Source: Cucumis sativus (taxonomy: Eukaryota > Streptophyta > Magnoliopsida > Cucurbitales > Cucurbitaceae). From it: DNA of 64,000 nt. The notes under the pieces were generated by a model that saw nothing but the letters and a program-made list of their open reading frames with translations, did no database searches and was not told where the DNA came from. The stretch is taken from positions 12,772,001 through 12,836,000 of the forward strand of contig NC_026657.2 of the NCBI RefSeq assembly GCF_000004075.3. Direction: 5' to 3'. Each line of letters begins with the position of its first letter. Position 1 is the stretch's first letter. Position numbers and translations under genes: made by a program. Below are positions 6,498-51,933 of the stretch, piece after piece.

Positions 6498-9400
6498 TTA
6501 CCTTCCTAACAAGTCCATGGCCATGCTTCTAGCTTGGTAAATTTGATGGCACCATGTTCCCACATCAGCAGAACGTACTGTAGCTTTCAAGAATAGAAAG
6601 AATTCCTCATAACCATCAATTCTCTCGAGGAAGGACTGGAAGCTTTGCCATTCCAATCCCTTAACTGATGCTTCTGCCAAATGTTGTTCTGTGGATTTGC
6701 GCTGTGCTCTTCTTGTTACTATTTCTTCCAACCAGACCCCCATTTCTGTGGCCCGTGCAATACACGATAAAGGTATCTAAAAACATAACAAAGGCAAAAA
6801 GAACTTGGGTCACAACAGGTAAACAGCATTCACACAGGTTTTTCAAGGGAGGATGCTTCATAAAATTTCAAACAGAGGGCAGGACAGCAGGATAAATGAA
6901 GTTACCTGTGCAAGTTGTGCTACTTTGAAACCAAAACTACTCTCCGCAACACCAGAAATGAGCTTATACAAGTAAGTCACATCCTCAGTTGATTTTGGGC
7001 CTGACAAGCTTGGACTTTTGTGTGATGTAAGATATGAAACATGGTATACCCCCGCAGATGCTGGGAATTCCTTTGCAATCTCAGCAACTTTGGGATAGTG
7101 GGTGACAAAGAGAACCAAACATTTCTTCTGCTGGAGTAGACTATGCAGAGCTGCGTATGCAATGGCCACACCATCGTGGGTGCTTGTACCTCTCCCAAGT
7201 TCATCAATTATGACCAAGGAACGTGATGAGGAATGACGGAGTATATGTGAAGTCTCAGTCATTTCTTCTAAGAAGGTGCTTCTACCTTGTTGAATACTGT
7301 CAGAAGCACCCATTCGAGTGTATATACCGTCCAGGACATGAAGTTTCGCAGAGAATGCTGGTACAAAGGAACCCACCTACATGGATGAGAAAAAATATTT
7401 GTGTGGTAAACTTGAAGAAATGTGATTGAGGAATAGAAAAGAAAAGAAAGCATGTCTAATGATAGAATAATCTAATGTATTGAGACTTGGAAGATGATGA
7501 AGGCGGGAAGGTGGAAGTGAAAATAAAAAACACAACAGATCATTCACATACCAAGCATATTGTTACATTTGTGAATTGTGAGCAGTTTTTTGTTTTCCCC
7601 TTCTTTTTTGGTTTAAATAATTTTGTTTATTATAAATATGTGTGTGCGTGACACAGTTACAAATAGGGTTTGGTTTACCTGAGACATTAGAGCAATGAGA
7701 GCAACTTGTCGAATGTAGCAACTTTTTCCACCCATGTTCGGTCCTGTTACAATTTGACAATGCTCTCCATTCGCGTCCAAATTTGTGTCGTTTGGGACAA
7801 AATTGCCTTGTAATGTACCTTCCAAAACCTGCCTCATCGTACATGGTAAACATATCTAAAAGCCACAACAAGAAAGTCGCCTATGTTCTCTATATATTTA
7901 GCTTCGTGACAGAAAAATGGAAATTCCAACATCTATAGTGATAAATATCTGACAATTGTAAAGAGCTATCCCAGTTGATTTCAATGAAAAGTAGATCCCA
8001 ACTATGGGATGAAATGCAAAACCAAACTGTTTCAATTGCTTTTGGTACTATCCAATGCCTCATCCCAAAAATATGGGGAAAAAAGACACTAGAAAGTAAT
8101 TTAGTTGAATGAATAGTGAACATTGGTAAGTAATTGTACCGGATGGCGTCCAGAACATAAATGTATCTGGGCAGGTTCATCATCAGGTACAAACTCTGGG
8201 CGAGCATAGTTCTGTATGAAATTCAAGTTAGAAAGAATAACATTTTGATATCATATAATGAAAATTGAAGCAGCTTTTCTATATGACCTTATTTCTTGAG
8301 AGGATTGCTAACGAATACAGACAGTCTATGGAAGCCAATGCTTGAACAGCAGCTTGAAACTCTGCATAATATCTGCTGAATCCTCTCAGAAAGTCATCCC
8401 AAGCATCACGAGACGCAACCATGAGCTCTTCATTTGCCAGTGATAGCTCATCTAATGCAGCCAATACTTCAGGTGGGTGATACCTTACAGTTTTCTTGGT
8501 ACTATTGATCTTAACCCACTGTGAAGGCACCTTTACATCTATGGCTAGCTGTACACAAGACATTAAGCATGAAATTAAAGAAAATCATTTTATGCATCCC
8601 TTCCAGTCCTAATTTTAGACTTTAGTATCTGAAAGGTTTCCATGACATTATTTTACATGGTAGTTTGAAATGAACAACCTCAATCAAATGTGTAGTTCCA
8701 GACACACTAGTGAACTCCAACTTCCGCATTCCAAGCTGCTTGCGGTAGAAGGTGATCAGAGCATCCAATTTCTCTCTTGCAGATTGAGCCTCCTTCCGAG
8801 CTCTAGCAACCTGAAAAAAAACTAGTGTTAAAAACGATAATGAAAGCAGAATGTATGGAGCAGTACAGCAAATACTTAAGAAAATGACTGTAGACAAGGA
8901 CATTTCTAGTAAAAAACATATACACCTTTGGAAATTGGTCACTGTAGATGATCATTAGGTTTGGAAAGTCCCCTTGATCTGCAGCTTCTTTGCTGATCGT
9001 TGACAAAAGCTTTGCAGCAATGTTTATTAAACCAGAGGAAGAAGCAGATAAAATCAGCTTTCTTAGGAGCTTGGAGCCAATAATACTTTCACTGGAACAA
9101 TTGTCATCTTCTTCATCAATGTGAAACTGCTGAAGCTGTTTTCCCGCAAATAAAATAGCTTGAATAACTGCAATGAACTGCATCATACATTATTTGGAAA
9201 TGTCACCGTGCAATATAGAAAACGCAAAATCAATAGGAAGTCTATTAGAAGTAATAAGAGTAAATCATAAACTAAAAAAGGACCAGTGCAGTAATGGCAG
9301 GTATCGGAACCATCAACTTTTTAAAGAAACCAAAATATACGAAAAGGTCCAATTTTTTACGAATCCACCAACCCCACAGATGACAAATCCCCCACTCCTG

Positions 9401-12400
9401 CACTGCAAGAGGGAAAAATGATGGCAATAGATATACCTACACGGTATGTAGAAATGCCATTAACTGAACTACCATATAATCAGTTGAGCACAATGCACAA
9501 TGCACAATGTTCATAAGCTGTTTCACAATGCCATTACATTTGAATGTAAATTAGCTCGTATTGCAGGTATATGAAGTGAAAATAAAAATAAAAATTATCA
9601 CTGATGCTCAAGAAAATACACCCCTATTCCTGTCGCTACAAGGATAAAAGTAACTTTTAGTACCTCTGATGGGGCTGCTGTTCGGTGAAAGATTCTTGTT
9701 ATTCCACGCTGAATATCTGGTGCCCTTCCCAAGGTTGTCAACACAGAAGAAAGTATGTAATTCAATTCTGGTTCAATGACAATGACATCAGAATATTCTT
9801 CATCCAACGCTCTGTTATTTGGAGATACTTTTGAAGATACCATAGATGCAGCAATCTCAGAAACAGCCTCTTGACGAGCAATTATCATGTTTCTATCACA
9901 TAAAGGATGTGTTATCTGTACCATAAATTGTAAATTTTAGAAGTGGAAAAATGATCGACCTAATAACATGAAAGACAACATAATATGATACATACCCATT
10001 GGCGAAGAAGCCTTGAGCCAAATATTGTAAGAGTATGATTCATGCAATGTAATAAAGATCCAGTTTCAGAACCGTCATCATTATTCTTCAAAACCTAAAT
10101 CATAGGACATAAAGACAGTAAGAAAAACAAGTGAAGCACTTGAACATGTAAAGATATGGCATACAAAGAAATTAACTAAAGATAGAAGAAAGGTTAAAAT
10201 ATTTTTGAAGAAAGGGTCAAATATTTTCCATTGAGCCTCTAGGTTTTAATTTCTATTTAGACTCTAGCTTGTTCAAAACTGACATTTTGAATCCTTGATA
10301 TTTAAATTCAGTTTCTATTTCATTTTAAGGTTTCAAAAGTTAAATGTTTGATCCTTGAGGTTTGAATTTGAGTCTTAATTGATCCCTGAAGTTTAAAATT
10401 AGTTTCTAAATAGTCCCCAAGCAGGGTTGACTGCTAGTTGATACAACAATAATGACGTGTCAGTTAAACTATACAGATTAAACTTGGCACATATGTATTC
10501 TTTAAATGAGTTGGAGTTCTTAATAACTTTTTTATACTCATGGAACAATTAGCAATCACTGTCAAACTGAAAAAAACTAATAAGAAACCAAATTTACATT
10601 TTAGGATTAACCAAGTGAAATTTGAACCTCCAGAACCAAATCGAAAGTTCAAAGATAAAAAGTGTATGTTTTGAAAACTAAGGACCTTAGAAATGAAGTC
10701 TAAATCTCCAAAAAAGGAAAAAATAAAGGAAAAAACAGTTCAAAAGATTAAAATATTGGCTTAAACAAATGTCCATGAGTTTGTTTTTTTAGTATATTTA
10801 CATATGAAATTACCTCGAGTTGTGTAAGCGTATTGCCTGAGAGGGTCATCTCCATTTTGCATGAGAATGGCCTAAAAGAAGATGCCAAAGACACAATCCT
10901 TTCTAAACCAAATTGCTTCAAGTGACGAATGGTTAAGGCCAATGCTTGAAGAGCTAAATTTGGCATGTTCACTATTTCCTTCAAATTCAGCATAAAATAG
11001 TCTCAGAAGAAGAAAATACATTTTAGTAAAATGAGAAACATAAAAGAAGAAATAATGCATAAATAAATAACAAAAAAGGGCGGTCATGACCATATCTAGG
11101 AAACTATATGTCTATAACAAGGTCCTGAAACAGACCTACAAAAAGTTAAAAGCAGAAAATCCCTAACAAGCTGTACCTTAATTGCTGAGCGGTTACTTTT
11201 TTGTCCAACCAACACTTTTTCAGGGTTGTTATCTTCAGTGAAGTTATTTTGGTCAATGTTTTCATACAAAGACATCACTTCAGCAAGTGCACTGCCATCT
11301 TTAAAGCAATCTCCCGATACACGCTCCACACGGACATTCAAAGCAGGTCCAGCATAACCTAGCAATAACTAGTCACAAACAATCCCCATCAGAAAATAAT
11401 GGTAAGTTACAGCTATAAAGGAACAGAAACCAACAACCAAGAAAGAGGGGGAAATACACAAGTCATAGGAAAGCATGCTTTATAATGAGACCATCAATTT
11501 GATTATGTAAATTTTTTTAAATAGCTATAGGAACAAGTAAGGTTTTAGCAACTACACGGTGTTGTAGTATGGATGACTAAAAGTTGCAGTTGATAGAAGA
11601 AAGTGCAATTTAAAACATAGCACCAAGCATGAGAGCACGATTTCCAGGCCTATTCTGTTTGAGTCCATCTCTTGAAAGGCATACCATCCAAAACCAAACA
11701 GGTGCATGTGCACTGACCAAGTTGGAGGAAAGCCTAGAACTATTCCTACCCCGGCTCCTGGATCTCTCCTCTCCTTGGAAAAATCCTCCTCGAAATAGCA
11801 TCGAAGCAATCTCTGATTAGGGCTATCAAACCACACACCCAACATTTTCCTAGAAAATATCCACTGCCTTCCTCCATCTACATGTACCCCATAATGCTAT
11901 TCCAAGGCCAAGATAACAATTAAACAAAACACCTGAAAAAGTTGGGCCAAATATAAACGAATCAAATAAAAATCCAAGTGAAGATGTCCAAGAACCATAT
12001 TTGCACAATCGGCATTCTTCTACCCCGATGGTTGAAGAACACTGCTGGCATTGATGAGCATAATTGGGTTGTTGTCAAGATGATGATACAAAAGCGGGTT
12101 GTACATGTCAAAGTTGAAGAAATTTTATGTTCAAAGGATAGTTCAAGCTGTAGCCATCAGATATTTATATTATCTTTTTCATCTTATAATCTGACATCCA
12201 TCCTAACAGAAACTTCAACTACCCTATCACACAATCAAGAGGCATACAACCTACATGATCAATACAGCAAGCAACAAAGTCCAAGCAGGCAGTAAAAGCA
12301 AGGCTTCCTACTCAATCTAAAACTAGGCAGGCACAATCAAAACGTACAATTGCCCATTAAGTTAAACAGAACAGACAAAAAGGAAGGAAGAATGTGCAAA

Positions 12401-13529
12401 AAGCTGTTTTCTCATTTCTTCCTTGACACAACGTTATATTTTAGCTACAATAAATAATTTACACCTTCTCTGTTGGCTTTGATATGGGATCTCCAAGAAG
12501 TAACTCAGCAGGAGACAGGCTCAAGAGCATTGCCTCAAGTCCATTTCTCATAAAGTTATCGTCATATTCCCCATAAATAACATCCCCAGTTGATATCTCC
12601 ATGGCAACCATCCCAATTTTCACATCAACCCCATTTTCGATTCTACAGTCCACATTTTGCACCGACATACTATTTTCAACCAAACAGAACAAGTAATTAC
12701 TCTCCCCAGCACATCCCTCTTCAGCTCCCCCTAAATCCTGTGCTGCCTCCAATGTTGCTTTAGTATACAAAGCCGATAATCCCCTACAAAACGGGCCCAA
12801 CTTATTCGACCCATGAGCCTTAATCGCAGCAGTTTCAGTTTGCTTGACAACACCCACCTTATACCCTGCACTAACCAGCCTTCTCACGTGCACATTCAAT
12901 CTAAAGGTGGGTATACTCGCAGTCATAAAATTATGATCCAAATGAGCATAAATACCCAAAACACGAGCCGCTATTACAGCATCTTGGCCAAAAAATCTGT
13001 ACCTATAACCAACCTCCACCATGAGAAGAACATCAGGGTACCTCTTCTTAAGGTCCACAACCTGTTGTTCCAAAGGTGTGTATTTGTATTTGGGATCAGC
13101 ACCATTTGAGGTTCTGGGGTTTTGATTAGAAGGTTGGAAAGAGTCATCCGTGGGTTCAAGGAGCTTGTCGAGAAATCTTTGGTGAAGTGAGGGATTGGGG
13201 ATGGAAGGTAGAGGGTTGTGGGTGTGAGGCGAGAGTTTTGGGCGTTTAGAGGATTTGGGCGGTGTTAACTGAGAGGCGATGGCAGAAGAAATGAGGCGTT
13301 TGGAAGGGGAGAAAGTGACTGTAGCCGATACCTTAGCAGGTGAAAACGGTTGGGTCGGCGGAGTTATGTCGGCGGCGGTGGCAGAGGAGGAAGAAGAAGA
13401 AGAAGAAGAAGAAGAAGAAAGAGAAGGGGACTTGGGTTTTGGAGCAAAGAATCGAGAGATCACTTGTTGCTTCTGTTTCCCCATGAAATTTTCAGAAAGA
13501 AATCCGTTGTTGCTTCTTCTTTTACTCAC
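6498..13529 (-). CDS. MSH3: MSH3, MutS-homologue mismatch recognition ATPase
   Basis: Partner of MSH2 in MutS-beta, which recognises insertion/deletion loops in the nucleus. Exons in transcript order: 13529-12465, 11368-11177, 10978-10814, 10094-9996, 9915-9664, 9177-8926, 8810-8679, 8548-8288, 8211-8140, 7828-7679, 7376-6906, 6776-6498. Every exon ends in phase 0. The frame gives 1129 residues from the first ATG; the family-conserved start [13 protein letters not shown] lies 15 codons in, at 13484, giving 1114, close to the usual 1080-1110. That start holds a PCNA-binding box (QQVISRFF). MutS-I reads [14 protein letters not shown]. The ATPase has Walker A GPNMGGKS (about 844-851) and Walker [16 protein letters not shown] run of 12 serines lies in the disordered N-terminal tail. 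It appears intact. Tail to tail with SEND1. Confidence 0.95.
10200..10740. repeat. Possible dispersed repeat in MSH3 intron 3
   Basis: This part of the intron repeats phrases such as GATCCTTGAGGTTTGAATTT and GATCCCTGAAGTTTAAAATT, and its two ends are weakly similar in inverted orientation. That pattern is common in non-coding plant transposon remnants. Family not assigned. Confidence 0.35.
13390..13419. repeat. (GAA)10 microsatellite coding for poly-Ser in MSH3
   Basis: About ten uninterrupted GAA units on the + strand, read as TCT/TCC serine codons in MSH3 exon 1 on the - strand. They encode most of the 12-serine run in the N-terminal tail, so length changes would be in frame. Confidence 0.9.
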
Positions 13530-14093
13530 GATTCAGGAAGGCATTGCCATTTACACATACACATTGGCCATTGCTTTGGCGCGCTTTTTCATTCTATTCA
13601 CAATTAGTAATAACACTATAGAGTTTTTATAGACTTTTATACTTACGTGCGTCCGGAAGAAGTTTGTGCTTTTAAATTTTCGTAAATGATTCAATATAAA
13701 CTCTTGAATTTCTTTCTAAATCTGTTTACGCATTTGCTCTAATTGTAAGTCAATTTTGTAAAAACAAAATATTGTAAGAATGATTTGATTTTCTCATAAA
13801 TTTTTATGTGTTTAATTTCCACAAAATTAAATTCTAAATCAAATAGGATTGTCAAAAAAATAAACATAGTTTAATTACTTGTGTTAAAAGCTTGATTCTT
13901 CTCCCACACATTGTTAAAAAGAATTGGAGAGTTCATATTATCAACCTCATGTTTGAAATTTAAATATTTACTAAATTCTTAACTCACACTCAAAAGGCAG
14001 AATAGTAGAGTGAGAGTGAGAAATCCTAACTTTTTGACCTCTAATAAAAAATAGGAATAAATGTTAATAGTTGTTCTTCCTATTCAAAATATC
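13530..14093. other. Spacer between the PPR gene and MSH3
   Basis: 564 bases holding the MSH3 promoter and 5' UTR at the low-coordinate side and the 3' region of the PPR gene at the high side. AT-rich; apart from the E2F-like site nothing stands out. Confidence 0.6.
13575..13584 (-). promoter_or_regulatory. E2F-type site upstream of MSH3
   Basis: TTTGGCGCGC on the + strand contains TTTGGCGC, which fits the plant E2F consensus TTTSSCGC. It lies about 46 bases before the first ATG and about 91 before the conserved one. E2F control of DNA replication and repair genes is well known; use of this site is inferred. Confidence 0.5.
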
Positions 14094-15788
14094 TTATAAA
14101 AGATAAGATCTTCCATTGGGTGCATAAATAACACTACTCTGTCCAGTCTTCTTCAAAATATTCTCATTTTCCATTTTTTCCCTTGCATTTACAGCCTCTG
14201 CCCACTGCTCGACTGATGCATACATATTCGAAAAGCTCACATGGATTCCACCTTCTTTTGATCTCAATTTCCTCGCCCTTTCAACTATTTCCCCCGCTCT
14301 CTTGAAATCACCTCTTAACTTACAACCACCCAACAAAGCTCCCCATATTGCAACATCAGCCTCAAATGGCATCTTGTCTACTACATCCAATGCTTCCTCT
14401 AGCCTCCCGTTTCGACTCAGCAAATCAACGATACAACCGAAATGTTCGATTCTAGGTCTAATTTTATATTCCTTCTCCATCATATCAAATATGGTTTGAC
14501 CTTCTTCAACCATCCCTCCATGGCTGCAGGCAAACAAAGCTCCTAAAAAAGTGAAGTCATTTGGCTTCAGGCCTTGTTTCTGCATCAAAGAGAATAGTTT
14601 AAGAGCATCTTGAGCTTGTCCATGAAGAGCAAGTGATTTCAGCATAACGTTCCAAAAAAACACATCTTTCTTTCCTATTTTGATGAAAAGATTAAAAGCT
14701 CTGTTGATGTCTCCACATTTGGCATACATTTCAATCAGAGCAGTTGCAGCAATAACTCCAAGTTGAGAGAAATCATCAATCGCGTAATGTATCTTTGTGC
14801 CAAGCATTAAATTGCCCAAATGAGAACAAGCTGAGAAAACAGATACAAAAGTATACCCATCAGGAGTTATGCCTTCTGATAACATTTGGTTAAAGAGATC
14901 CAATGCTTCCTGAAAATCCCCATGTTGAACATAGCTAGAAATCATGGAATTCCAAGACACCACATTTCTTTGAGGCATTTTATTAAAGAACATTCTGGCT
15001 GTAGCAAGATCTCCAGCTTTGGCATAAGCACTAATCATAGAAGTCCAAGACACAACATTCTTCTCTGGCATTTTTTCAAATAACTCTCTTGCTTTCATTA
15101 CCTCTCCTACCTTTATATAACCGGAAATCATTGTATTCCACGAGACGGTATCTCGATCTTCCATTGTATTAAACAACTTCTGTGCACCACTAACATCCCC
15201 AGTACTCGTATACCTTAAGATCATTCTGTTCCATACTTCAACAGATCTGACACACATTTCATCGAACACCTTGCGAGCATCAGAAGCCATCCCATCAGCA
15301 GCATCCTTAGGTCCAGTAAATTTTGAAAAATTGACATATAAATGAAAAAGAGCATCAGAAACTGAAGAATTCAATGAAAACCCAGTTTTGAGAATTCGAC
15401 AATGCACTTTCTTTCCATCCCAGAACCAACCCAAATCAGCACACGACTTTAGAACAAATGGGTAGGTGAAACTATGGGGTTTGAGTCCTCTTTGAAGCAA
15501 ATCGCCATACAAGGACACAGATTGGTGAGCAGGGCCATTGAAAGCGTAACCCCTGATCATTGCGTTCCAGAATTGAATTTCGGTTTTAAAACTGGGACTG
15601 AGATGAGAAAAGACGAGACTTGCGTAATCCATGATCCTGAATTCGGTGGTTCGTCGAAGAAAGCTGGAGGAAATATGGATGTTTTGGTGAATGGAAGTGG
15701 TTAAGAGAAGAGCGTGGATTTGTTTGAGCTGCGGAAAGTTGCATCTCGGTAATAGCTCTGAAATTTTGGGCTCCAAATTCATCATCAT
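14094..15788 (-). CDS. PLS-class pentatricopeptide repeat protein, E-type tail
   Basis: A sequence-specific organellar RNA-binding protein by family. Single exon, 564 residues, as is usual for plant PPR genes. At least nine repeats are visible, with signatures such as VSWNTMISGY, VSWTSMISAYAKAG, VSWNSMISSYVQHG and FFWNVMLKSLALHG. The alternation of long and short motifs marks the PLS class, whose members mostly serve C-to-U editing. The tail ends in an E-like segment (VAIWGALLGGCKLRG then NMYASVEQW) and a short KKTGQSSVIY block. There is no DYW deaminase, so if it edits it must recruit one. No clear targeting peptide: it begins MMMNLEPKISELLPRC. The start could also be the second or third Met. 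Confidence 0.9.
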   Translation of the reverse strand: MMMNLEPKISELLPRCNFPQLKQIHALLLTTSIHQNIHISSSFLRRTTEFRIMDYASLVFSHLSPSFKTEIQFWNAMIRGYAFNGPAHQSVSLYGDLLQRGLKPHSFTYPFVLKSCADLGWFWDGKKVHCRILKTGFSLNSSVSDALFHLYVNFSKFTGPKDAADGMASDARKVFDEMCVRSVEVWNRMILRYTSTGDVSGAQKLFNTMEDRDTVSWNTMISGYIKVGEVMKARELFEKMPEKNVVSWTSMISAYAKAGDLATARMFFNKMPQRNVVSWNSMISSYVQHGDFQEALDLFNQMLSEGITPDGYTFVSVFSACSHLGNLMLGTKIHYAIDDFSQLGVIAATALIEMYAKCGDINRAFNLFIKIGKKDVFFWNVMLKSLALHGQAQDALKLFSLMQKQGLKPNDFTFLGALFACSHGGMVEEGQTIFDMMEKEYKIRPRIEHFGCIVDLLSRNGRLEEALDVVDKMPFEADVAIWGALLGGCKLRGDFKRAGEIVERARKLRSKEGGIHVSFSNMYASVEQWAEAVNAREKMENENILKKTGQSSVIYAPNGRSYLL

Positions 15789-18700: not shown

Positions 18701-19518
18701 TTTTTTCAATTTCATCATCAACAATCTTCACTGCTTTACATCCATTTTCCATTTTTAAAAACAACCACAATTACACGATTTTAGTTCATATTTATTTAGT
18801 TACTATCTTATATTTCATCAATTACTTATTTTACTTTCTACCTTACTATTATAATAGCAACCTTTTCATCATTTTCTTAATATACAATTTTGTTCTTGGA
18901 TAGTGTTTTTTTATACACGATTTCACCTAAAACATTTCTTGCTGTATATAATTAGTAAGGGATAAGTATTTTTAATAGTTTGGGGTTTTGATCCCTCTCA
19001 CATGGGTATTTGTGATTAATGTTACACTCTTACATTTATAACATTTTGCTCATGTCATAATCTATTGTCTAATTTTGTTATATCGTAGACACAATGAAAT
19101 CATCCCTATTGCTATCTCCATCTTTATAAAAATAATTTAATAAAGTGGGAGAAAAAAATTCAACATACATTTAACAACGTATCATGTTAGAGAAATTAAG
19201 TTACGACATAAGCAAAATATTATAAATCATAACTTTTGAAAAGAGACGAGTCATCAATCATAAACATTCTTGTCAATCATATATAAAAAACCAAAATAGT
19301 TTGAAAAGCAAAATTGGGAGAATTCTATCTAAACTTAATGATATAATGTGATATGTGGAGTTCTATTGTCATATTTTAAAGGCTTTTTTACTATGGTTGA
19401 AATGAAGAAATAATGAGAAGACATAAAAATAGGAAAAACGGAGTATAAAAGGGGAAGACAAAATGAAAAGAGCTTAAACAATAAAAACTTGGTGGAAAAT
19501 CAAGGAAGAGAAACAGAG
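15789..19518. other. Long AT-rich spacer, 15.8-19.5 kb
   Basis: 3.7 kb without a gene I can support. Around 16.03-16.56 kb the base composition is more even and open frames exist on both strands, but none resembles a protein family or has flanking splice logic. The remainder is AT-rich with short TA and ATT runs (for example near 17.36 and 17.48 kb) and a poly(A) stretch near 18.43 kb. The last 200 bases are the MYB promoter. Confidence 0.5.
19444..19450 (+). promoter_or_regulatory. TATA box of the MYB gene
   Basis: TATAAAA lies 69 bases before the MYB start codon, with purine-rich leader sequence between. Good match and spacing, though transcription start is unknown. Confidence 0.55.
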
Positions 19519-20319
19519 ATGGGATGTAGAGAAACAGAGAAAGAAAAAGTAAAGAAGAAAGGATTATGATCACCTGAGGAAGATGAAAAGTTAAGAAGCT
19601 TCATCCTCAAGAATGGGCATGGCTGTTGGACTTCTGTCCCCATTAAAGCTGGTGAAGCATGCTTTCTTCCTTTGGCTCCCCCAATCAATCATTACAAACA
19701 TTAAAATTTTGAACCCTTTTTGGTAATTACAAGTGCAGGATTATTAAGAAACTCAAAGAGCTGCAGATTGAGATGGTTCAATTACTTGAGGCCAGGGTTG
19801 AAAAGAGGAATGTTTAGCCAGCAAGAAGATGAGAAAATCTTGACCCTTCATCGCTTGTTAGGCAACAGGTAAATCTAATATCTTTAACTAGTTCGGGTAC
19901 CATGTTAAAATTATTGATGGATTAGGATGATGATTTCAATTAGGTGGTCTCAAATAGCACAGCATTTAGCAGGAAGAACAGACAACGAGATAAAGAACTA
20001 TTGGAATTCTCATCTGAAGAAGAAAGTGGTCTTGAATTTCCAAGATTTCAAAAGTGGAGTTTTTTCGAATCGAGATCCGCCGTTGGAGGAGATGGGAAGT
20101 TCGGGAAATGAGCGGATTGAAAGCCAACCGAGGGTCTTGTTTGCAGAATGGCTTTCTGTGTCTGATGTTAATGGCGGGAGCTCCATGGAAGGAAGTTTTG
20201 ATGGTGAGGGAAGAAGAAGAACAAGTAGAGAGGGCTATGGTTTTGAGATGCTCAATTGGGACCTTGATTTTGAGGGACACATTTCTGATGGCTTTGCAAC
20301 TTGTGATCAATTGTGGTAA
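19519..20319 (+). pseudogene. R2R3-MYB transcription factor, LAF1/MYB18-like, with an in-frame stop
   Basis: A nuclear DNA-binding regulator by family; LAF1 promotes phytochrome A signalling in Arabidopsis. Exons 19519-19651, 19739-19868 and 19944-20319 splice cleanly at the usual R2R3-MYB intron positions and total 639 nt (213 codons). R2 should open GLWSPEEDEKL, but codon 17 (19567-19569) is TGA in place of TGG, at the first conserved R2 tryptophan. Everything after it is intact: second R2 Trp in [20 protein letters not shown]3 with GNRWSQIA and [10 protein letters not shown], then a 100-residue tail with LFAEWLS, a motif also seen in LAF1. One G-to-A transition explains the defect, so this is a recent null allele, a sequencing error, or an early pseudogene. 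No alternative start or splice preserves R2. Confidence 0.8.
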
Positions 20320-20753: not shown

Positions 20754-23698
20754 CTAAAAGGGCATATTTTTCTCCCACATATCAATTTGTTTGATTGGAA
20801 TATCTTTTCTGGTTCGAATGTAGTCGAGAGCAAACGGGCTAAAAGGAGGAAGCAAGAAGCAAGGGCTCGAGAAGGAAGGTCGTTTTATGAGGGTATCCAT
20901 CATGGACTTGGCAGCTAAGCCTTCGGTAGGGCAAGCCAAATCGTTCAAAGAAATTTCAGTAGCATTTGGTGGGATGGTTGGTTTGAAAGTTAAGAGCTTG
21001 GAGTATTCATTTAGAGTATGAAACATGTAATCATACACCTTGTCCATGTTTAGTTGCTCTTCCATGAACTTACTTGCTGCCTTCCCAATTGCTTGTGCCT
21101 AACAAGGACATTTAAGAAACATAAATTTTAGCCAATCAAGGTTTTCATAGTTTTTCTCACACAATCTAATAGTGTTAATGTGATTAATCAATCACATTGT
21201 TGTGTCTATATATCTTTTCAAGGAGACGATAGATATTATTATTTAAAACTAAATTGTTAGATATAATGAAATTAAGCACCTTTTGTTTGTGGGTAGTCCC
21301 CCACTCAACAGCAAATTTGATAGATTTGCACATATCATCATCATCTTTGATTGGCCAATAGTGATGCATTGGCACTAGACTTCTTGTGAAGAAATCATAG
21401 AAATGAGGTTTTACCATTAATGTCATAGAATCACAAGCAAGAATATATTTGAGACTCACTGACCAACCAATCCCCTCGATGTAAACTTTATACCTACAAA
21501 ATAGTTTTCATATCATTGATATATTCACTCAAACAACAAAAGAAATACTTCAATTATATATTTTGCATCAAATAGCTCCACAAAAGTTATAAAAAAGAGA
21601 ATCAAATCAACGTCTAATAAGTGATTAAACTAAAATGTTTAATAGGATTTTAAACATTACAAGCAAATGTCTAATACATTCTTATAATCTTCAATTTTGT
21701 ATCTTAAATTATTCTATATCATTTTAAAAACCTTCATAATTTTCTATTAAACAAACTATTCAATTTTATATTAAAGAATTTATTGTTTTTAAATAAATGT
21801 TAAATATGTGTGTGACATATTAGACACAATCCAAAGTTTAAAGTCCTATATAGCACGTGACATTAATAACTATATATATTTAAAAATTTTAAAGATATAT
21901 TAAAACTCGGGCAAACTTTAACCCAAAGAAAAAACATAACAAAAAAGTTAATAAGTGTAAAAAAGAAATACCTAGAAAAACATTGATCAGCAAGATTTGA
22001 GTTTTTGAATCCTTGTTTACCTTCTTCTTGCCAATCCTGCATAACCATTATTATCGATGAAATTCTAGGTATAATAATAATAATGCCTAAATATTTATAA
22101 ATAAAACAAAATTTCTAATCGATACTGATAAACCTTGATAGATTTTTGATAGAATTTGAAAGTTTACTATATTTGACAACCCTCCTAAGAATAATGGGAG
22201 TAGTAGTAGTGTTATTATAGGGTGTTGGATTAAATTGAAGTAATGGTTCGACTAAAAAAGAAAAATATAGTATTAGAGGTGAATGATAAGTAAATAATTA
22301 AGAAATATAATAACATGTACCTGCATGTAGACACGAAGTTTGGATTGAGTAGAGCGACTGCATTTTAAAAGTTGATATCTGGGCATAGAAATAAAAGTAT
22401 TTCCCTTCCAAAAAGCATAGTTTTCTCTGTCTATCCATTTTTTCCTTTGGTTTGCTTCCTTTAGTTCTTTCATCTCTGTTTCCCATGGCTTTAAATTAAT
22501 CTCTGGCCTTGTATAATTCAATAATTCAATAATTCAATAAATAATCATCACATATATTTACAAATAAAAATAAAAGAAGAGAAATATATTGATGTGGTGC
22601 CTGTCTAAAATCCATCCATCAGTTAAAACAATAAACTTCTATACCTTAAAAATCTATAGTAATAGACCTCTTAACATTTAAACATTTAAACATAAGTATA
22701 GATTTATTCAAATATTGTTTTCAAAATAAATAAAAATAGATTATTATTTATTACTATAAAAAAGATAATAGTTTATTATTTGTATATTTTTGTCATTTAA
22801 AATAATTAAAAAGAAATAGCAAATATTTGAATGGGTTGGAGAAGGGAAGAAATATTTACCATCCCCAGAAGGACCAATCAGGAAAAACGATGTCAAAGGT
22901 GTCATCGTCTCCACAGTACCGGAACAAAGGAGGTGGGGCCGTTGAATTGGGCCCAGGCCCACTATAATTACCAATAAAAACAGTGGGCTGGTCTTCACAA
23001 GCAAACATGAGGTCCAAATCAGGAATTTGATCTGGGTACCACCGTAACAATTGTAGGATCCCCCACAGCGTAAAAACATCCCTCCTTTGAAACACTTCTG
23101 AATACTTCTCCACGTAAGCCCTACCGCCGACGATCACCAGCCTGAAGGTAGCATTCTCCCGCCCTCTCTCCACCATCTCCCTCGTGATCCCTGTCTCAGC
23201 CCACGGCTTTAGATCCTCGTGGATCCAACGGAAGTATTCCGGACACGTGTTTTCATTTTTCCCGTCTCCATCTTCTTCCTCTTCCTCTATTGTGGTGGGA
23301 CCGATCCCACTATCCCATTTCTCGCTCCGTGAATATGCCGTACAATTAATGGGAGAAAATTCGACTTCCTTCTGAGGGTAATTTTGTAATTCCCTTTCTC
23401 TCCTCGCCCCCATCGGCTTCGCCAAAAGTGACAACAAAAATATTTATATCATCCGACACATCGTTTCAATAATCGTCGTAATTTTAAAACAAATATATAT
23501 ATATTAAAAAGAGATTATAAATTTTCTAATCCATAAAATGCAGATTTTGAAAAGTAAAAAAGAGAGAGAGAGAGAAAAAAAACTTACGGATATTTGTGAA
23601 GAGATTATGAAATAGCCAACAACAAAGAGCAAAACGTAGAAGAAAAAATAGGGGAAATAGGGTTTAGGTATTGGGTTTCTATGAACGATGCTACCCAT
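20754..23698 (-). CDS. GT90 (CAP10/rumi-type) O-glycosyltransferase, copy A
   Basis: Type II membrane glycosyltransferase of the ER/Golgi by family; the plant substrate is not established. Exons: 23698-23588, 23416-22860, 22507-22321, 22036-21972, 21493-21280, 21098-20754; 1479 nt, 492 residues. Membrane anchor at about residues 13-33 in exon 1. The catalytic region has TCPEYFRWIHEDLKPW, PDLDLMFACED, FPDWSFWGW, YIEG-WSVS-KYILACDS and FYDFFTRSLVP, all shared with copies B and C. Differences: the stem keeps one NCT but not the downstream ACP-YP cysteine, a Glu-rich insert follows, and exon 3 is two codons shorter and diverges at GNTFISMPRYQLL, where B and C read GNP-VA-TR-DL. The exon 2 acceptor (after GCGAAG) is plausible but not certain. 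Divergent from copy B, 2.7 kb away. Confidence 0.88.
22130..22190. repeat. Fragment of a GATAGA-rich dispersed repeat
   Basis: Contains TTGATAGATTTTTGATAGAA followed by a TTTACTATATTTG block, a pattern resembling sequences at 46.64-46.86 and 54.50-54.69 kb. Lies in intron 3 of GT90 copy A. Probably a short remnant of an abundant cucurbit-type repeat. Confidence 0.35.
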
Positions 23699-26429: not shown

Positions 26430-29306
26430 ATGAATGATTCTCGCCGCCCCAAGTTTCCTAAGCAGCACTTCTCCGCTGAGAAACTGCTATCCTTCTCCAA
26501 TGCCTCGCCTCGATCTTCTGTTATCATCTTTTTTGCCGCTGTGATCCTCCTCAGCATGTTTCTCTCCAGCCGACTCCTCGGCCTCTTACTTGTAAGTTCA
26601 TATTAAGCCACGCAATTCAATTCCCCCCCCCCCCCCCTTTTGTTCTACTTTCCTTTCTACAATTCAACTATGTTTTGGTGAAAATCTATCAATTCCTCTT
26701 AAAAGTTATATGAAATAGTAGAAGTGCTAAGAATTCGAACCAAAACCTCTTTTTACTAGTCTTGTTCCATATTTTCAAAAAAATTCAAAATTCAGTAGGT
26801 GTAGTACTCTCAAGTTATAAATAAATGATGTAAGATGCAAGGATTAATTGGTCAATAATATAATTTACATATAGTTGAGTAATCATTTTTGAAAAATGTA
26901 GTGATTTCCGGCCATCCACTTTGGAAAATTTCCAAAGCATGTTGAAATTACACATTTGCCCCAAAATTTAAAGTTATGTATTTGACTGTTTTGATTTTTG
27001 GAGTTATACTTTAACATTTAGAGAACATTCCATGAAATTTATATTTTATTAATTTGATTTAATAGTGTTAATAGCTAGACGATTAATACTTAACTACTAA
27101 ATTGAATAATTTAAGTCAACAATAATAATGTCATGAATCAGATGAATGTGTTTTGAATAAAATGTGGCAAAAAGATTTAAATATTATAATCGACATCATA
27201 GAAGAAATTTATTTTTATTATTATTTTTTCATTAACATTATAGGGATTAAAATCCAATGTTATGAGTCAAGAACCACAAGGACAGAGGAAACAAGATCCT
27301 GATGGTCCAATGGTGGCAACGTGTCCAGAGTACTTCCGTTGGATTCACGAGGACCTAAAACCGTGGGCCGGAAGAGGAATAACGAAGTCGATGTTGGAAG
27401 AGGCCCAAAAGAAGGCCCATTTCAGGGTGGTGGTGGTGGAGGGAAAGGCTTACGTGGAGGCGTATGGAAAGGCATATCAAAGCAGAGATAACCTTACGGT
27501 GTGGGGAGTTGTACAGTTGCTACGTAGGTATCCAGGGAAACTCCCCGATCTCGATCTGATGTTTAGTTGTGATGACCGGCCAGAGATCTATCAAAAGGAT
27601 TACAGCGGGGCCGAGAAGCCGAGCCCACCTCCTCTGTTTCGATACAGCGGAGATGATGCCACGTGGGACATCGTGTTTCCTGATTGGTCCTTTTGGGGAT
27701 GGTAAGTTAAATATTAAACCTAACAAATTTAATTATATTGTTAACTAGTGTACTTCTTTGATTGCTTTTCCTGTGTTGATTATCAAATATTAAATGAATG
27801 TGTGGAAGTAATAAGATGAAAATGTTGGGGGGTAGGCCAGAGATCAACATAAAGGCATGGGAAAGCATGTTAAAGGATATAAAAGAGGGTAACAAGAAAA
27901 TGGGATGGATGAAGAGACAACCATATGCTTATTGGAAGGGAAATCCAGCTGTGGCTTACACAAGAAGAGATCTTCTTAAATGTAATGTCACCCAAAAACA
28001 AGATTGGAGCGCTCGTTTATATAGACAGGTATATATACACAAATATAATCAATTAGTTTTTCAACTATAATATAACTCAATCAATTAATATATAATTAAT
28101 TACTTTTTTTTTTATGTAGAATTGGGATAAAGAGTCTAAAGCAGGGTTTAAAGACTCAAACTTGGCCAACCAATGTGATTATAGGTAAATTAAAAAAATT
28201 GACAACAATTTTCATTGTATATTTTCTTAATTAGTTGAAATATATATATGAATATTATTGGTGATGATGAATGTAGGTATAAAATATATATTGAAGGAAA
28301 GGCATGGTCAGTAAGTGAAAAATACATTCTAGCATGTGATTCAGTAAGTCTAATTGTGAGGCCTCGTTATTATGATTTCTTCACAAGGAGTTTGATTCCA
28401 ATGAAACATTATTGGCCCATTAGCTCTAACCGCAAGTGTTCTTCTATTAAGTTTGCTGTTCATTGGGGCAACACTCATAGTCAAGAGGTATTTTCCTTTT
28501 CTGTCGTTTTAGATTAAATGATATATAAGTTGTTGATATAAGAGATATCAACTATTGACGACTAGGAGTGGTTAATCAAACGGTAAAAATTGAATCGAAC
28601 TTAACTGAAAATGAAACAAAAAAAATGTAGTTTTTCAATTCGATTCAAAAGAAATTTTTAACTGAATTTCTTCGGTTTAGTTTAGTTTCAATTTCAAAAC
28701 CATATGTGTGTCTATATATACAATCTTTAGTGGTGAAAATGGTCGACTTGGTGATGATTATTAAATGAAGTTTTAGAAAAAAATATGTGCAAAATACCGA
28801 ATCAAACCAAATTCGTTTATGTTTATCATTTCAATACAAATCGAAATAGTTAGAGATGTTTTTGTAATGTTGGAAAGCACTTGGAATTGATTTGAGTTTC
28901 AACTTACCCAAATAAAACAATGGGCGGTTATATTTGTCAGGCAATGGCCATTGGGAAAGCAGCAAGCAAGTTGATTGAAGAGGAGCTGAAAATGGAGTAC
29001 ATCTACGATTACATGTTTCATCTTCTAAACCAATATTCCAAGCTCTTAACGTTCAAACCGACTGTACCGCCCAATGCGACGGAGCTCTTGTCGGAGTCCT
29101 TGGCATCGGCTGCAAAAGGGTCTATCAGAAAGTCGATGATGGAGTCGGTGGTGACCAGCCCTGCAGAATCCGGCCCTTGCGCCCTGCAGCCACCATACGA
29201 TCCTCAATCTCTTCAGCTTTTGATTAGAAGCAAAGAAGATTCTATTAAACAAGTCGAAAAATGGGAGAGAAGTTTCTTTAAAAATAATGGTCCAATTGTT
29301 CAATAA
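26430..29306 (+). CDS. GT90 (CAP10/rumi-type) O-glycosyltransferase, copy B
   Basis: Same family as copies A and C. Exons: 26430-26591, 27244-27701, 27836-28028, 28120-28184, 28277-28487, 28941-29306; 1455 nt, 484 residues. Exon phases and the 193/65/211 lengths of exons 3-5 equal those of copy C. The anchor is at about residues 29-54 in exon 1. The catalytic part is complete: TCPEYFRWIHEDLKPW, PDLDLMFSCDD, GDDATWDIVFPDWSFWGW, YAYWKGNPAVAYTRRDLLKC, YIEGKAWSVSEKYILACDS, RYYDFFTRSLIPMKHYWP, IGKAASKLIEEEL. Odd point: the stem is reduced to some 25 polar residues (GLKSNVMSQEPQGQRK and on), without the two cysteine sites and NxT sequons that precede the catalytic domain in copy C. It looks functional apart from the shortened stem. 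Confidence 0.9.
26623..26637. repeat. Homopolymer (C)15 in intron 1 of GT90-B
   Basis: Fifteen consecutive C, about 30 bases after the exon 1 donor. Prone to length error in sequencing. It can also act as part of a pyrimidine stretch but is far from the acceptor. Confidence 0.9.
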
Positions 29307-42400: not shown

Positions 42401-43364
42401 ATTAATAAAATTAATACCACAATTGTTTCTCTAACTTATTTATATCGTTAATTAAATCAAAGATAGAAACTCTACCAACAACAGTTTATTCACTAAACAT
42501 CTATTTTTACTTGAAGATTAAGAGGTTTCATATATTCAAAATTTTCACTCCTATTTGTACTAAAAAAATAATAACATATCCCATAGGCATATCTCATGAA
42601 CATAAAAAAAAGAGTAAATAAATGTCATATTTACAAATACTTTATAATTGCGCTATATTTTAAACATGCATTCATGATCAACTACTTTAAAAGTGAGTGT
42701 TGAGATAATTTTACCTTTTTTTTAAAAAAAAGTAATTATTTATGTAAAGAAAAAGATGGCTATCATTTTGTTAAAAAAAAATAATGAAAAAACAAAAGTT
42801 GATATCTTTATTTGATTTTTTGAATGTATAAAAATGTAAACTTCTGTTTTCTTTTAATTTTCTTTCAATTATTTTTAGAATAGATTTAAGTTCGACATGT
42901 CGAACGGTGGGAAGTGAAGGCGAGCTGGGTGTGGAGAAACAGAAACGACAATCGACAAGTCTCGAGAGCTGCTTTGTGTTTCAGTTCATGTTACCTTGCC
43001 CTAGCAATCAAGTGGCATCTCTTCTCCTCCTCCACTCTCTCTTCCATTCAATCTGAAGAAGGAACTTTCATCTTGTTTTCAAGCGTTCTCTACAAAATCG
43101 TAAAACCCCAGATAAGTTTTCATTTCAACTTCAGATTTTCCGATGTTACATAGAAATTCAAAGTGCACATTCCTTCTCAAATGAAAATCTTCTGTTGGGA
43201 TTCGTAACCTATTGCAAGATTCGGGGTGTTCATGGTAAATGGGTGCCTCCCAATTTGGGGATACAAACGCTTCGGCGATTTCCCACTTGCCTATTTTTGC
43301 TCTGTTATTCGATTACTTGTTTTGTATAAGTTTTGTGAGTCTTTAGCGATAATGGGTGTCAATC
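39461..43364. other. Spacer 39.5-43.4 kb
   Basis: 3.9 kb, strongly AT-rich at 39.5-41.3 kb with ATT and TA runs. The part at about 41.38-42.48 kb is an LTR-like fossil listed separately. From about 42.9 kb composition shifts and probably belongs to the promoter and 5' UTR of the PPR gene. No other gene seen. Confidence 0.5.
41380..42480 (+). mobile_element. LTR-retrotransposon fossil, probably Ty3/Gypsy-type LTR
   Basis: The right-hand part resembles, from memory, the end of long terminal repeats of large plant Gypsy elements, including a CTCCCTGAGTTCGAC phrase typical of them. No gag or pol region is present. Edges are approximate and no flanking duplication was identified. An old, incomplete copy. 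Confidence 0.35.
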
Positions 43365-44795
43365 ATGAACTCTTTATCGCTTGTGAGTTCGCGGATAGTC
43401 TGCAGATTATTTTCAACTTCTTTTATTGTGCGTCGAACAATTTGGAATCGGAACTTCTGCAGTGACGATCGGTTTCAATTTTTTGTGGAACCCTTTAGTT
43501 ACTTGGCTGATGGGAACTCAGATTCTTTTGAGACTGATAGTCGTAGATGGGATGATTTTTCATTTAGAAGGAGTTTTCTAAAGGATGCGAAAATTGATGC
43601 TGAGAAAGTTATTGAAATTCTTAAACAGGATGGCCCTGGATTTGACACATTTTTGGCTTTAGATGAACTTCAATTAAAGGTCTCAGGGGTGCTTGTTGGA
43701 GAAGTTCTGAAGGGGATTTTGAAAAGTAAAAGTGTTCTAAACAAAACTCAGTGTGCAAAATTGGGGTACAAGTTTTTCATATGGAGCGGTAGGATTGAGA
43801 ATTATAGACACACTGTGAATTCATATCATATAATCATGAAAATATTTGCCGAGTGTGAGGAGTTCAAGGCTATGTGGAGGGTACTAGACGAGATGACTGA
43901 GAAAGGGTACCCTGTTACTGCAAGGACATTTATGATATTGATATGTACTTGTGGTGAGGCAGGCTTGGCTAAGAGAGTTGTTGAGAGGTTTATCAAATCA
44001 AAAACATTCAATTTCAGGCCGTATAAACATTCTTACAATGCCATTCTTCATGGACTAGTTATTGTAAAACAGTACAAGTTGATTGGATGGGTGTATGATC
44101 AAATGCTGCTTGATGATCATAGCCCAGACATTCTTACATATAATGTTTTATTGTTTTCAAGCTGCAAATTGGGGAAATTGGATCAGTTTCACAGATTGCT
44201 TGATGAAATGGCCAGGAAAGGGTTTTCCCCTGATTTTCATACTTATAACATTCTTCTTTATGTTCTTGGCAAAGGAGACAAACCCCTTGCAGCTCTAAAT
44301 CTTTTGAACCACATGAGGGAAGTGGGCTTTGGTCCCAACGTTCTTCACTTCACAACGCTTATAAATGGACTTAGTCGGGCTGGAAATTTGGATGCTTGCA
44401 AATATTTTTTTGATGAACTAGGAAACAATGGTTGCATTCCTGATGTTGTTTGCTACACTGTGATGATCACAAGCTTTACAGAGGCTGGGCAGCACGAGAA
44501 AGCTAGGGCATTTTTTGATGAGATGATAATGAAGGGCCAGCTTCCTAATGTGTTTACGTACAACTCCATGATTCGTGGTTTTTGTATGGTGGGTAAGTTC
44601 AAGGAAGCTTACTCTATGCTCTCTGAAATGGAATCCCGAGGTTGCAGACCAAATTTTCTTGTATATAGTACCCTTGTAAGTTATTTGCGAAATGCAGGCA
44701 AGCTTGGCGAGGCTCACAAAGTTATAAAGCAAATGGTTGAGAATGGGCAATATGCCCATTTAATGACAAAATTCAAGGGATATAGGAGATGCTAG
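43365..44795 (+). CDS. P-class pentatricopeptide repeat protein
   Basis: RNA-binding protein by family, likely mitochondrial: the N-terminus MNSLSLVSSRIVCRLF is hydroxylated, basic and free of acidic residues. Single exon, 476 residues; the start was set at the first ATG of the frame. After a non-repeat region with DGPGFDTFLALDEL come about eight 35-residue P motifs, for example HSYNAILHGLVIVKQYK, LTYNVLLFSSCKLGKLD, HTYNILLYVLGKGDKP, VCYTVMITSFTEAGQHEKA and FTYNSMIRGFCMVGKFKEA. All repeats are P type, the class linked to RNA stability, splicing or translation rather than editing. It ends shortly after the last repeat, with no E or DYW region. No defect seen. Confidence 0.9.
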   Translation: MNSLSLVSSRIVCRLFSTSFIVRRTIWNRNFCSDDRFQFFVEPFSYLADGNSDSFETDSRRWDDFSFRRSFLKDAKIDAEKVIEILKQDGPGFDTFLALDELQLKVSGVLVGEVLKGILKSKSVLNKTQCAKLGYKFFIWSGRIENYRHTVNSYHIIMKIFAECEEFKAMWRVLDEMTEKGYPVTARTFMILICTCGEAGLAKRVVERFIKSKTFNFRPYKHSYNAILHGLVIVKQYKLIGWVYDQMLLDDHSPDILTYNVLLFSSCKLGKLDQFHRLLDEMARKGFSPDFHTYNILLYVLGKGDKPLAALNLLNHMREVGFGPNVLHFTTLINGLSRAGNLDACKYFFDELGNNGCIPDVVCYTVMITSFTEAGQHEKARAFFDEMIMKGQLPNVFTYNSMIRGFCMVGKFKEAYSMLSEMESRGCRPNFLVYSTLVSYLRNAGKLGEAHKVIKQMVENGQYAHLMTKFKGYRRC

Positions 44796-48273: not shown

Positions 48274-51200
48274 ATGAGAGAAGGCTCTGGCGGTAGTTTC
48301 CGCAACAGGTTTTCCCATTACGCCTTTTTTCCCGATCATATATTCAAGCCGTTTATCAAATCTCCGGCCACTTTCTCTCTGTTGTTCTTGTTCTTCTCTC
48401 TCTTCCTTCTCGCCGGCGTCTTCCTCTCCACGCGCCTCCTTCATTCCTCTGTAAGTCTCTGTTTTTCTTCTTTTTTTTTTCCTATTGTTACTAAATAAAT
48501 CATTTTATTAATTTTTTTAAAAAAATATTTATCCTAAAAGTAAAGAAACCGACATGTCGTCTTGTGGTGCCGTGACATTTGGATTGGCCGAACTGTCGGC
48601 TCTATATTTTTCCTTGGAACAATAAGGCTCTCTATTTTTCGGACGCTTGTTCCTCCTTTATTTTTACGTTTTTGCCACGCGTCTTCTCTACACCAATTTA
48701 TAATTTGAGTTCATAAATAATTGCTTCCATTTAAATTATGATAATATATTTGGAAATTTTATTTTCAATCAATTAAATTTATAACGTTTTCATTAATTAT
48801 GATTACCTTTTTTTTGAAATTATTCATGGATCGGTTCTCAAATTTGTATAGATTTTTTCAAACGTGGATTTTACAAAAGGATCCAATAAAATGGGTGAAA
48901 GATTGGAATAGAAAACTTTAATAAATAATCTGGATTTATTCACTACGAAAGTTTAAGAATTTTATTTATATAACTATTAAGTGTGTGTTCTTCTAAACGA
49001 AATATAAGATATAGTGTATGAGGTAAAAGTAACCATAATTTTTTATTAAAAAAAAAAAACATCTATGTATTATGATTTAAGACATCACCTTTATATATAT
49101 AAAATAATATAGAAAGAACAAAAAAAAGTTAACACTATATTTGAAAAGTAGGTATGTTTTTTTGTAGGTTTCATATTCTGGGTCTTCCACAAACACTTAA
49201 AATTGAAAGCTACTTTTGTGGAGTATAAATTGGTTTAAGTTTTTGTTGCATAAACAGAATGGATGATTTCGAAGTCAAATTAAAAATAGTATGAAACATA
49301 TAGTTAAAATTTTCCCAGAGATGAGGGATACCGTTAAATTTGTCGGCAGAGAGATTTATTGAAAGTTCGTTGGATCTGATTTTATTTCAGACGACAGCGT
49401 ACAATTTAACCATAAAAGGGAGCGGCAAATCCCAATACTATCCTACCAACACTTCCCAAGTCCCACATAACCCAAACCACCAACCACGACGACCACAAGT
49501 CGAATTCACACTCCATTGTGCGTCCTTCAATAACATCACACCAGGAGCCTGCCCTGCCCACTACCCCACCAATTGGACTACTGACGAAGATCAGAACCCT
49601 CCGTCTTCTTCATCCGCGTGCCCCGATTACTTCCGCTGGATTCACGAGGACCTCAGACCCTGGGCCCGGACGGGGATCACGAGGGCCACGCTGGAGGCTG
49701 GGCAACGGACGGCCAATTTCCGGCTACTGATTCTGAATGGGAAGGCTTACGTGGAGACTTATAAAAAGTCGTTTCAAACGAGAGATACTTTTACGGTGTG
49801 GGGGATCCTACAGTTGTTACGGAGGTACCCCGGAAAAGTGCCTGATTTGGATCTTATGTTTGATTGCGTTGATTGGCCCGTGATTTTGACTAGCCATTTT
49901 AGTGGGCCTAATGGGCCTACCCCACCTCCTTTGTTTCGTTATTGTGGAGATGATGCCACGTTCGATATTGTTTTTCCTGATTGGTCCTTCTGGGGATGGT
50001 TAGTCAATCTTTGACTTTTGATTACATTACTCATTACAGCATGCTCCCAGCAATTAAATGTTTCTTCTTATTGCTTTATTAAAAATTTAGGACACGAACA
50101 TGATAAACACATGTATGTATACACGGTGGCATATTCATAACTTCGCATGATGTGCTGCTGAGTTGAGCATATTCTAATCTTTTAAGTTAGCTGACGAAAT
50201 ATTTAGCTTAGTTAAGCAGAGAAAAAACTAGTTACCCCTTTAGGTTGCTGGCGTGGTGCTATTTATACTGTGCGTCCTTTGACACCTGCTTGGAATATTG
50301 TGTAATATTGGTGGTGTCAGATGACTATGCCCCTCGAAGTTGCAGAGTGTCAGCAGCAAGCTTAAATCTATCATTTTCCCTTTGGTTTATAAACTCTAAT
50401 ACATTGGTTGGTCAATGCAGAAATTAGAGGTTTAACTTTCCCTTTTGGGACATAGGAGCTTGTCCATGAGCTTTGGATCTTAGACTACTCTTGACATCAT
50501 ACGTTATCTAAAATAAAGCTTTTTAGCTTCTTAGAAATTAATAATTGTTTGAAACCGATCATGGGCGTTGCCTTATAGAAGATCAAAATGAACTTTTTAA
50601 ACTTCCGACACTAGCGTGAGTGAAGTGTCGTTTCCTTGAGGTTTTCGGTGTTGTGATGATTTAATAATTAATAGTTAATACAGTGGCCGACTTTTGTAGG
50701 CCAGAGATCAATATAAAGCCATGGGAGCCGTTGTTGAAGGATATAAAAGAAGGGAATAAAAGGATCCCATGGAAGAGTAGAGAGCCTTATGCATACTGGA
50801 AGGGAAATCCAGAGGTCGCCGACACCCGAAAAGATCTAATCAAATGCAATGTGTCTGACCAACAAGACTGGAACGCTCGTGTATTTGCACAGGTATCGAT
50901 TTACATTTAAATATTGTCAAATATAAAATCACTTGAGGATTCATTAGAGATCAGAAACTAGGACAGAAATTCTTATAAACTTGAACAGAACTCGATTGCT
51001 AGTGGATCGAGTTCAGCTCATAATATTGGGTTAGGAACTAGGACAGGAATTCTTATAATTCTTGGAAAAATAATTTTCAGGATTGGACGAAAGAATCCCA
51101 GGAGGGATACAAGCAATCAGATCTTTCAAACCAATGCCTTCATAGGTAAAATTTGAAGCCTCTTTCTTTCTTCAGTCCAATGTTATTAGCTAATCTTTCA

Positions 51201-51933
51201 CTCAACTCAACTCTGTTTTCTTTTGTATGAAACACATTTGCAGATATAAAATCTATATAGAAGGATCAGCTTGGTCTGTTAGCGAAAAGTACATTCTTGC
51301 TTGTGATTCTGTTACCTTAATTGTAAAGCCCCATTACTACGACTTCTTCACGAGAGGTTTGATGCCAGTGCACCACTATTGGCCTGTAAAGGATGACGAC
51401 AAGTGCAAGTCTATAAAATTTGCAGTTGATTGGGGCAACAGCCATAAGCAAAAGGTAATTCTACAATAGGCTAAACCGGTTACTAGCTTTATACAATATT
51501 ACGGGTTAAATTCTCCTTATACGGTTTGAGTTTCGAGTACGAGATTATGTATCTTATTGTGGTTACTCAGGCACAAGCCATTGGTAAAGCAGCTAGCAGT
51601 TTCATCCAAGAGGAGCTGAAGATGGACTATGTCTATGACTACATGTTTCATCTTCTAAGTGAATATTCCAAACTCCTTACTTTCAAGCCGACGCTACCGC
51701 CCAATGCAATCGAGCTTTGTTCTGAAGCCATGGCTTGTCCAGCTGAAGGGCTCACCAAGAAATTCATGACAGAGTCATTAGTGAAGAGGCCTGCAGAGTC
51801 GAACCCATGCACAATGCCGCCCCCATATGATCCCGCGTCGCTTCATTTTGTTCTTAGTAGAAAAGAGAATTCAATCAAACAAGTAGAAAAATGGGAGACG
51901 AGTTTCTGGAATACTCAAAGTAAGCAGCCATAG
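48274..51933 (+). CDS. GT90 (CAP10/rumi-type) O-glycosyltransferase, copy C
   Basis: Most canonical of the three copies. Exons: 48274-48450, 49391-49998, 50700-50892, 51081-51145, 51244-51454, 51571-51933; 1617 nt, 538 residues. Anchor at about residues 33-55. The stem has sequons NLT, NTS, NIT and NWT and cysteines in LHCASFNN and GACPAHYPT, then SACPDYFRWIHEDLRPW. The catalytic part has PDLDLMFDCVD, GDDATFDIVFPDWSFWGW, PYAYWKGNPEVADTRKDLIKC, YIEGSAWSVSEKYILACDS, YYDFFTRGLMPVHHYWP and IGKAASSFIQEELKMDYVYD. Probably a Golgi or ER glycosyltransferase with a disulphide-bonded, N-glycosylated stem. Convergent with the ADF gene, 390 bases apart. No defect seen. Confidence 0.92.

What the first reader, a model, noticed from the sequence alone, without database searches (positions are those of the whole stretch)
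19519..20319. LAF1-type MYB with TGA at the first R2 tryptophan, otherwise intact
Codon 17 is TGA exactly where GLWSPEEDEKL demands TGG. The other 195 codons, both introns and the LFAEWLS tail motif are undamaged, which is unusual for an old pseudogene. It suggests a recent loss-of-function allele in a light-signalling clade (possible domestication or breeding effect), or a base error. Position 19569 decides it.
Basis: partly seen in the sequence, partly recalled or inferred. Interest (0 to 1): 0.75.

Follow-up and report, generated by a model that had tools for sequence, protein, structure and literature searches.

The report
Cucumber MYB gene with early stop
One of two sister MYB regulator genes in a cucumber genome carries a single early stop codon while the rest of it and its sister look whole, so it is most likely a recently silenced gene, which is ordinary unless other cucumbers still carry a working version.

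Summary
At 19519-20319 lies a three-exon R2R3-MYB gene, open over 212 codons except for TGA at codon 17 (19567-19569), where the first tryptophan of R2 belongs. Splice dinucleotides, start, stop and LFAEWLS tail are present. Protein masses match published cucumber MYB entries, so the genome is cucumber. An intact sister gene lies on the same contig (L039), with TGG at that codon and the same tail motif; the two pair with 100/94 support in a 42-row tree. Of 43 distinct MYB-domain rows examined, 41 have W there, one does not cover the position, and only the window copy has a stop. Best reading: a natural null allele or young pseudogene. The window copy has changed no faster than its sister, and the lack of a second lesion suggests loss within the last few million years under assumed rates. 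A consensus-base error is the main rival and cannot be excluded without reads. No call tested domestication or a light-signalling effect, and the intact sister makes a strong phenotype less expected. Ordinary kind; modest interest.

The parts
19519..19651 (+). Exon 1: start codon, basic N-terminus, first part of R2 with the stop codon inside
   Evidence: open frame apart from codon 17; aligned with the sister gene
19567..19569 (+). TGA, codon 17, at the first R2 tryptophan
   Evidence: TGG in the sister; W in 41 of 42 distinct rows that cover it
19652..19738 (+). Intron 1, 87 bases, GT-AG
19739..19868 (+). Exon 2: end of R2 and first part of R3
19810..19812 (+). In-frame ATG (codon 69) at the start of R3, a conceivable restart giving 144 residues
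   Evidence: six out-of-frame ATGs lie between the first ATG and this one
19869..19943 (+). Intron 2, 75 bases, GT-AG
19944..20319 (+). Exon 3: rest of R3, C-terminal tail and final stop
20137..20157 (+). LFAEWLS tail motif, shared with the sister gene
19444..19450 (+). TATAAAA, 75 bases before the ATG: possible TATA box
   Evidence: position only, no expression data

Best explanation
This is a natural loss-of-function copy (null allele or young pseudogene) of one of two sister LAF1-type R2R3-MYB genes of cucumber, made by a single change in the third base of the codon for the first R2 tryptophan. Shown: the stop codon, the otherwise open frame and splice sites, the intact sister, and equal rates of change in the two copies. 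Inferred: translation ends after 16 residues; the message should be open to nonsense-mediated decay, because the stop lies 82 bases before the first exon junction (rule recalled); no DNA-binding domain is made; the intact sister may cover part of the role. Not known: whether the stop is fixed in cucumber, common, or private to this accession.
For: Open frame, start, stop and splice sites intact. Sister L039 intact with TGG, published as Csa3G914600 by mass. Sister pair 100/94 in the 42-row tree. dN/dS between the copies 0.216 over the gene and 0.129 in R2R3, so both were long under selection. Relative rates equal: 6-8 changes unique to the window copy against 6-9 unique to the sister over six outgroups. 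No second lesion: under assumed rates, median 0.6-2.7 and 95% upper bound 2.4-11.5 million years. One copy of this DNA in the assembly. No other R2 start found upstream.
Against: One assembled base carries the whole case and no reads were seen. Everything else being open is also what a base error in a working gene would look like. A published 299-residue entry (Csa3G182040) may be another model of this locus and was not reproduced.
Confidence: 0.72

Rival explanations
1. Assembly or consensus error: the plant has TGG here and an ordinary working gene.
For: A single base; everything else in the gene is open; rate of change equal to that of the intact sister; a working gene and a very young null look the same in one assembly.
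Against: No sign of error in the neighbourhood was seen, and no other domain row examined has a stop; no direct test was possible. The low prior for a wrong base at one of the places in this gene that make a stop is my own judgement.
Confidence: 0.17
2. The locus still makes a useful product: either an R3-only protein from the ATG at codon 69, or a protein from an unseen first exon.
For: In-frame ATG at the start of R3 gives 144 residues with R3 and the tail. By its number, one published R2R3 entry (Csa3G182040, 299 residues) falls between two genes that I placed on either side of this locus, and the window gene is the only Myb match listed between them (150 of 470 candidates scored).
Against: Six out-of-frame ATGs come first. 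The pattern scan of 10.6 kb upstream gave one match, itself broken by a stop, and no other Myb match of note is in the window. Enumerated models of the locus did not give the published mass.
Confidence: 0.06
3. A null allele picked by domestication or breeding for a light-response trait.
For: The time scale allows it; the family label points to light signalling (passage).
Against: No data on other accessions, sweeps or traits could be reached; an intact sister gene exists. Paper searches with LAF1 and cucumber or Cucumis listed seven papers, none by title on a cucumber LAF1 gene; a search with premature stop, domestication and cucumber listed one paper, on apples and pears.
Confidence: 0.03

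Closest known systems
Cucumber Csa3G914600 (Cs2RMYB-36), locus L039
   Same: Same three-exon layout, 113 of 209 aligned residues identical, same [LF]FAEWL tail motif, sister in the tree
   Different: TGG at the codon in question, intact, 253 residues, second intron of 461 bases instead of 75
Arabidopsis LAF1 (MYB18) with MYB19 and MYB45, subgroup S16
   Same: R2R3-MYB; the KGLWSPEED start and the tail resemble LAF1 as I recall it
   Different: No Arabidopsis sequence was compared in any call; the window copy has a stop in R2
WEREWOLF R2R3-MYB (PDB 6kks)
   Same: Best solved-structure match of the part after the stop, E 4.6e-35
   Different: Another MYB subgroup (recalled), with a complete R2

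Membership tests
R2R3-MYB transcription factor gene | Two Myb repeats, R2 and R3 | tested here: met
   The 195 residues after the stop give two PF00249 stretches, 104.9 bits in all against a cut-off of 24.4
R2R3-MYB transcription factor gene | Complete R2 with its first tryptophan in one open frame | tested here: not met
   TGA at codon 17; W in 41 of 42 distinct rows that cover the position
LAF1 / MYB18-MYB19-MYB45 clade (S16) | Groups with Arabidopsis LAF1, MYB19 and MYB45 in a tree | not testable with these tools
   No Arabidopsis sequence could be fetched; only cucumber rows were in the trees
LAF1 / MYB18-MYB19-MYB45 clade (S16) | Role in phytochrome A signalling | not testable with these tools
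   No expression or trait data
Sister pair with Csa3G914600 | Closest to L039 among cucumber MYB genes | tested here: met
   100/94 in the 42-row tree, 96/86 in the 32-row tree; tail motif found in no other scanned locus
Young pseudogene / null allele | One disabling change in an otherwise conserved gene | tested here: met
Young pseudogene / null allele | Disabling change confirmed in reads and absent from near relatives | not testable with these tools
   No reads or other cucurbit genomes; scans of genome contigs and viral contigs gave no plant relative

The most novel reading that the evidence does not exclude
The early stop turns an R2R3-MYB into an R3-only MYB with its own tail, translated from the ATG at the start of R3, which could act against the intact sister gene instead of being silent.
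Probability: 0.03. Interest if true: 0.55.

Novelty: new member of a known kind. Interest (0 to 1): 0.27.

Why it matters
If the stop is real and variable among cucumbers, it is a ready natural knockout of one of two sister MYB genes, useful for asking whether the pair acts in seedling light response or growth. If it is fixed, it is one more gene loss after duplication. If it is an error, it corrects one reference base.

Tried and rejected
Alternative first exon: a pattern scan of 10.6 kb upstream on the + strand gave one match, at 16439, itself broken by a stop; a domain search of the whole window gave no other Myb match better than E 3.9.

Published gene at the locus: the 2012 list of 55 (PMC3479133; passages, outline and sections 5 and 6 seen) has no chromosome 3 gene between 8.59 and 13.02 Mb of its assembly, but I found no entry for the intact sister there either (no 253-residue gene on chromosome 3), so its silence is weak; three of its genes are on unplaced scaffolds, with lengths unlike this one. 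In the 2020 list (PMC7744742; passages and the section with Table 1 seen) only Csa3G182040 could be this locus by order. Enumerated models gave no mass match (0 models of 299 residues with the sequence as it stands, 45 with the stop read as Trp, none within 0.6 Da). Models with more introns were not tried, so what Csa3G182040 is stays open. Paper searches for Csa3G182040 and Csa3G914600 each listed that one paper.

Relatives elsewhere: genome contigs gave one weak match in a Trichodesmium bin (L047, not followed up) and viral contigs none. RNA fold around the stop: z 0.24, no sign of a read-through structure. The bacterial promoter scan and the tandem repeat scan add nothing. Passages only were seen of PMC10196401, PMC8775554, PMC3462118 and PMC9113232.

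Full report
What is there. The window is part of contig C3 of a 226.6 Mb genome. The genome is cucumber: three genes that I modelled on C3 have masses equal to published cucumber entries within 0.2 Da, 33693.0 against 33693.1 for Csa3G168940 (L044), 28517.4 against 28517.6 for Csa3G914600 (L039) and 25251.3 against 25251.4 for Csa3G199590 (L019) (PMC7744742, passages and the section with Table 1 seen). Their lengths agree if the published ones count the stop for the entries compared; the published isoelectric points are 0.1-0.5 higher than mine, which I put down to different calculators. The accession is not shown.

The gene. Exons 19519-19651, 19739-19868 and 19944-20319, with GT-AG introns of 87 and 75 bases, give a 639-base CDS open over 212 codons save for TGA at codon 17. 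The part after the stop has two Myb repeats and matches WEREWOLF in the PDB. A TATAAAA lies 75 bases before the ATG.

Is the stop out of line? Yes. The sister gene L039 has TGG in that codon, with the same two codons before it and the same two after it. In 43 distinct Myb-domain rows taken from this genome (54 rows before duplicates were dropped) 41 have W, one (L037) does not cover the position, and the window copy alone has a stop. These are the loci that I fetched, not every MYB gene: one search lists 149 Myb-domain matches and scored 150 of 470 candidates.

Kinship. In a 42-row tree (54 rows, less duplicates and the gappy L037) the window gene and L039 pair with 100/94 support; in an earlier 32-row tree with 96/86. 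Both have an [LF]FAEWL motif in the tail, which a pattern scan found in no other fetched MYB locus. A search of the genome with the sister's whole tail finds the sister alone, so the tails have otherwise diverged widely. The LAF1 name is a lead: a passion fruit paper lists AtMYB45, 18 and 19 as one subgroup (S16) with photomorphogenesis (PMC10196401, passage seen), but no Arabidopsis sequence could be compared.

How old is the loss? The two copies differ at dS of about 1.5 in R2R3 and 2.0 overall (close to saturation), with dN/dS 0.129 and 0.216, so both were kept by selection for most of their history. With six outgroups the changes unique to the window copy number 6-8 and those unique to the intact sister 6-9. 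No second stop, frameshift or splice change has appeared. With assumed rates of 4e-9 to 1e-8 per site per year and 5-15% indels per substitution, that gives a median of 0.6-2.7 and a 95% upper bound of 2.4-11.5 million years since constraint ended (a calculation on assumed rates, not a measurement). Against full integrity: alanine for a proline kept in 28 of 28 other typical rows and serine for a glycine kept in 26 of 28; the sister's own departures at such positions are the milder R to K and I to V. This may show slight relaxation or mere drift.

How it works, most likely. The message would give a 16-residue peptide and be open to nonsense-mediated decay, since the stop is 82 bases before the first exon junction (inferred; rule recalled). 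A restart at codon 69 would give 144 residues, R3 with the tail, but six out-of-frame ATGs come first. No other R2 start was found upstream. So the locus should be null, with the intact sister as a possible substitute.

What is not settled. One base decides between a null copy and a consensus error, and no reads, accessions or cucurbit relatives could be reached. Only one full copy of this DNA is in the assembly. One published entry, Csa3G182040, may be a different model of this locus; its mass was not reproduced.

Verdict. Observation confirmed; recent loss of function likely; base error possible; domestication untested; an ordinary kind of event.

Noticed in passing
window 20754-23443 (-), 27244-29306 (+), 49325-51933 (+): Three stretches of glycosyl transferase family 90 (rumi-like) genes lie around the MYB gene, the nearest on the opposite strand just downstream. 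First parts of all three match PF05686; the ends were read by eye from the ORF list.
   Followed up: partly
window 6858-13532 (-): ORFs with MutS domains V and I, at the two ends of what looks like one DNA mismatch repair gene.
   Followed up: no
window 14094-15788 (-) and 43353-44795 (+): Two pentatricopeptide-repeat genes, each in one long open frame.
   Followed up: no
window 59587-59991 (-) and 62041-62565 (-): Two neighbouring PAR1 protein ORFs, PF06521, perhaps a tandem pair.
   Followed up: no
L047:4312-4386: A Trichodesmium metagenome bin contig with a short Myb-like match (56% over 25 residues), perhaps eukaryotic contamination.
   Followed up: no
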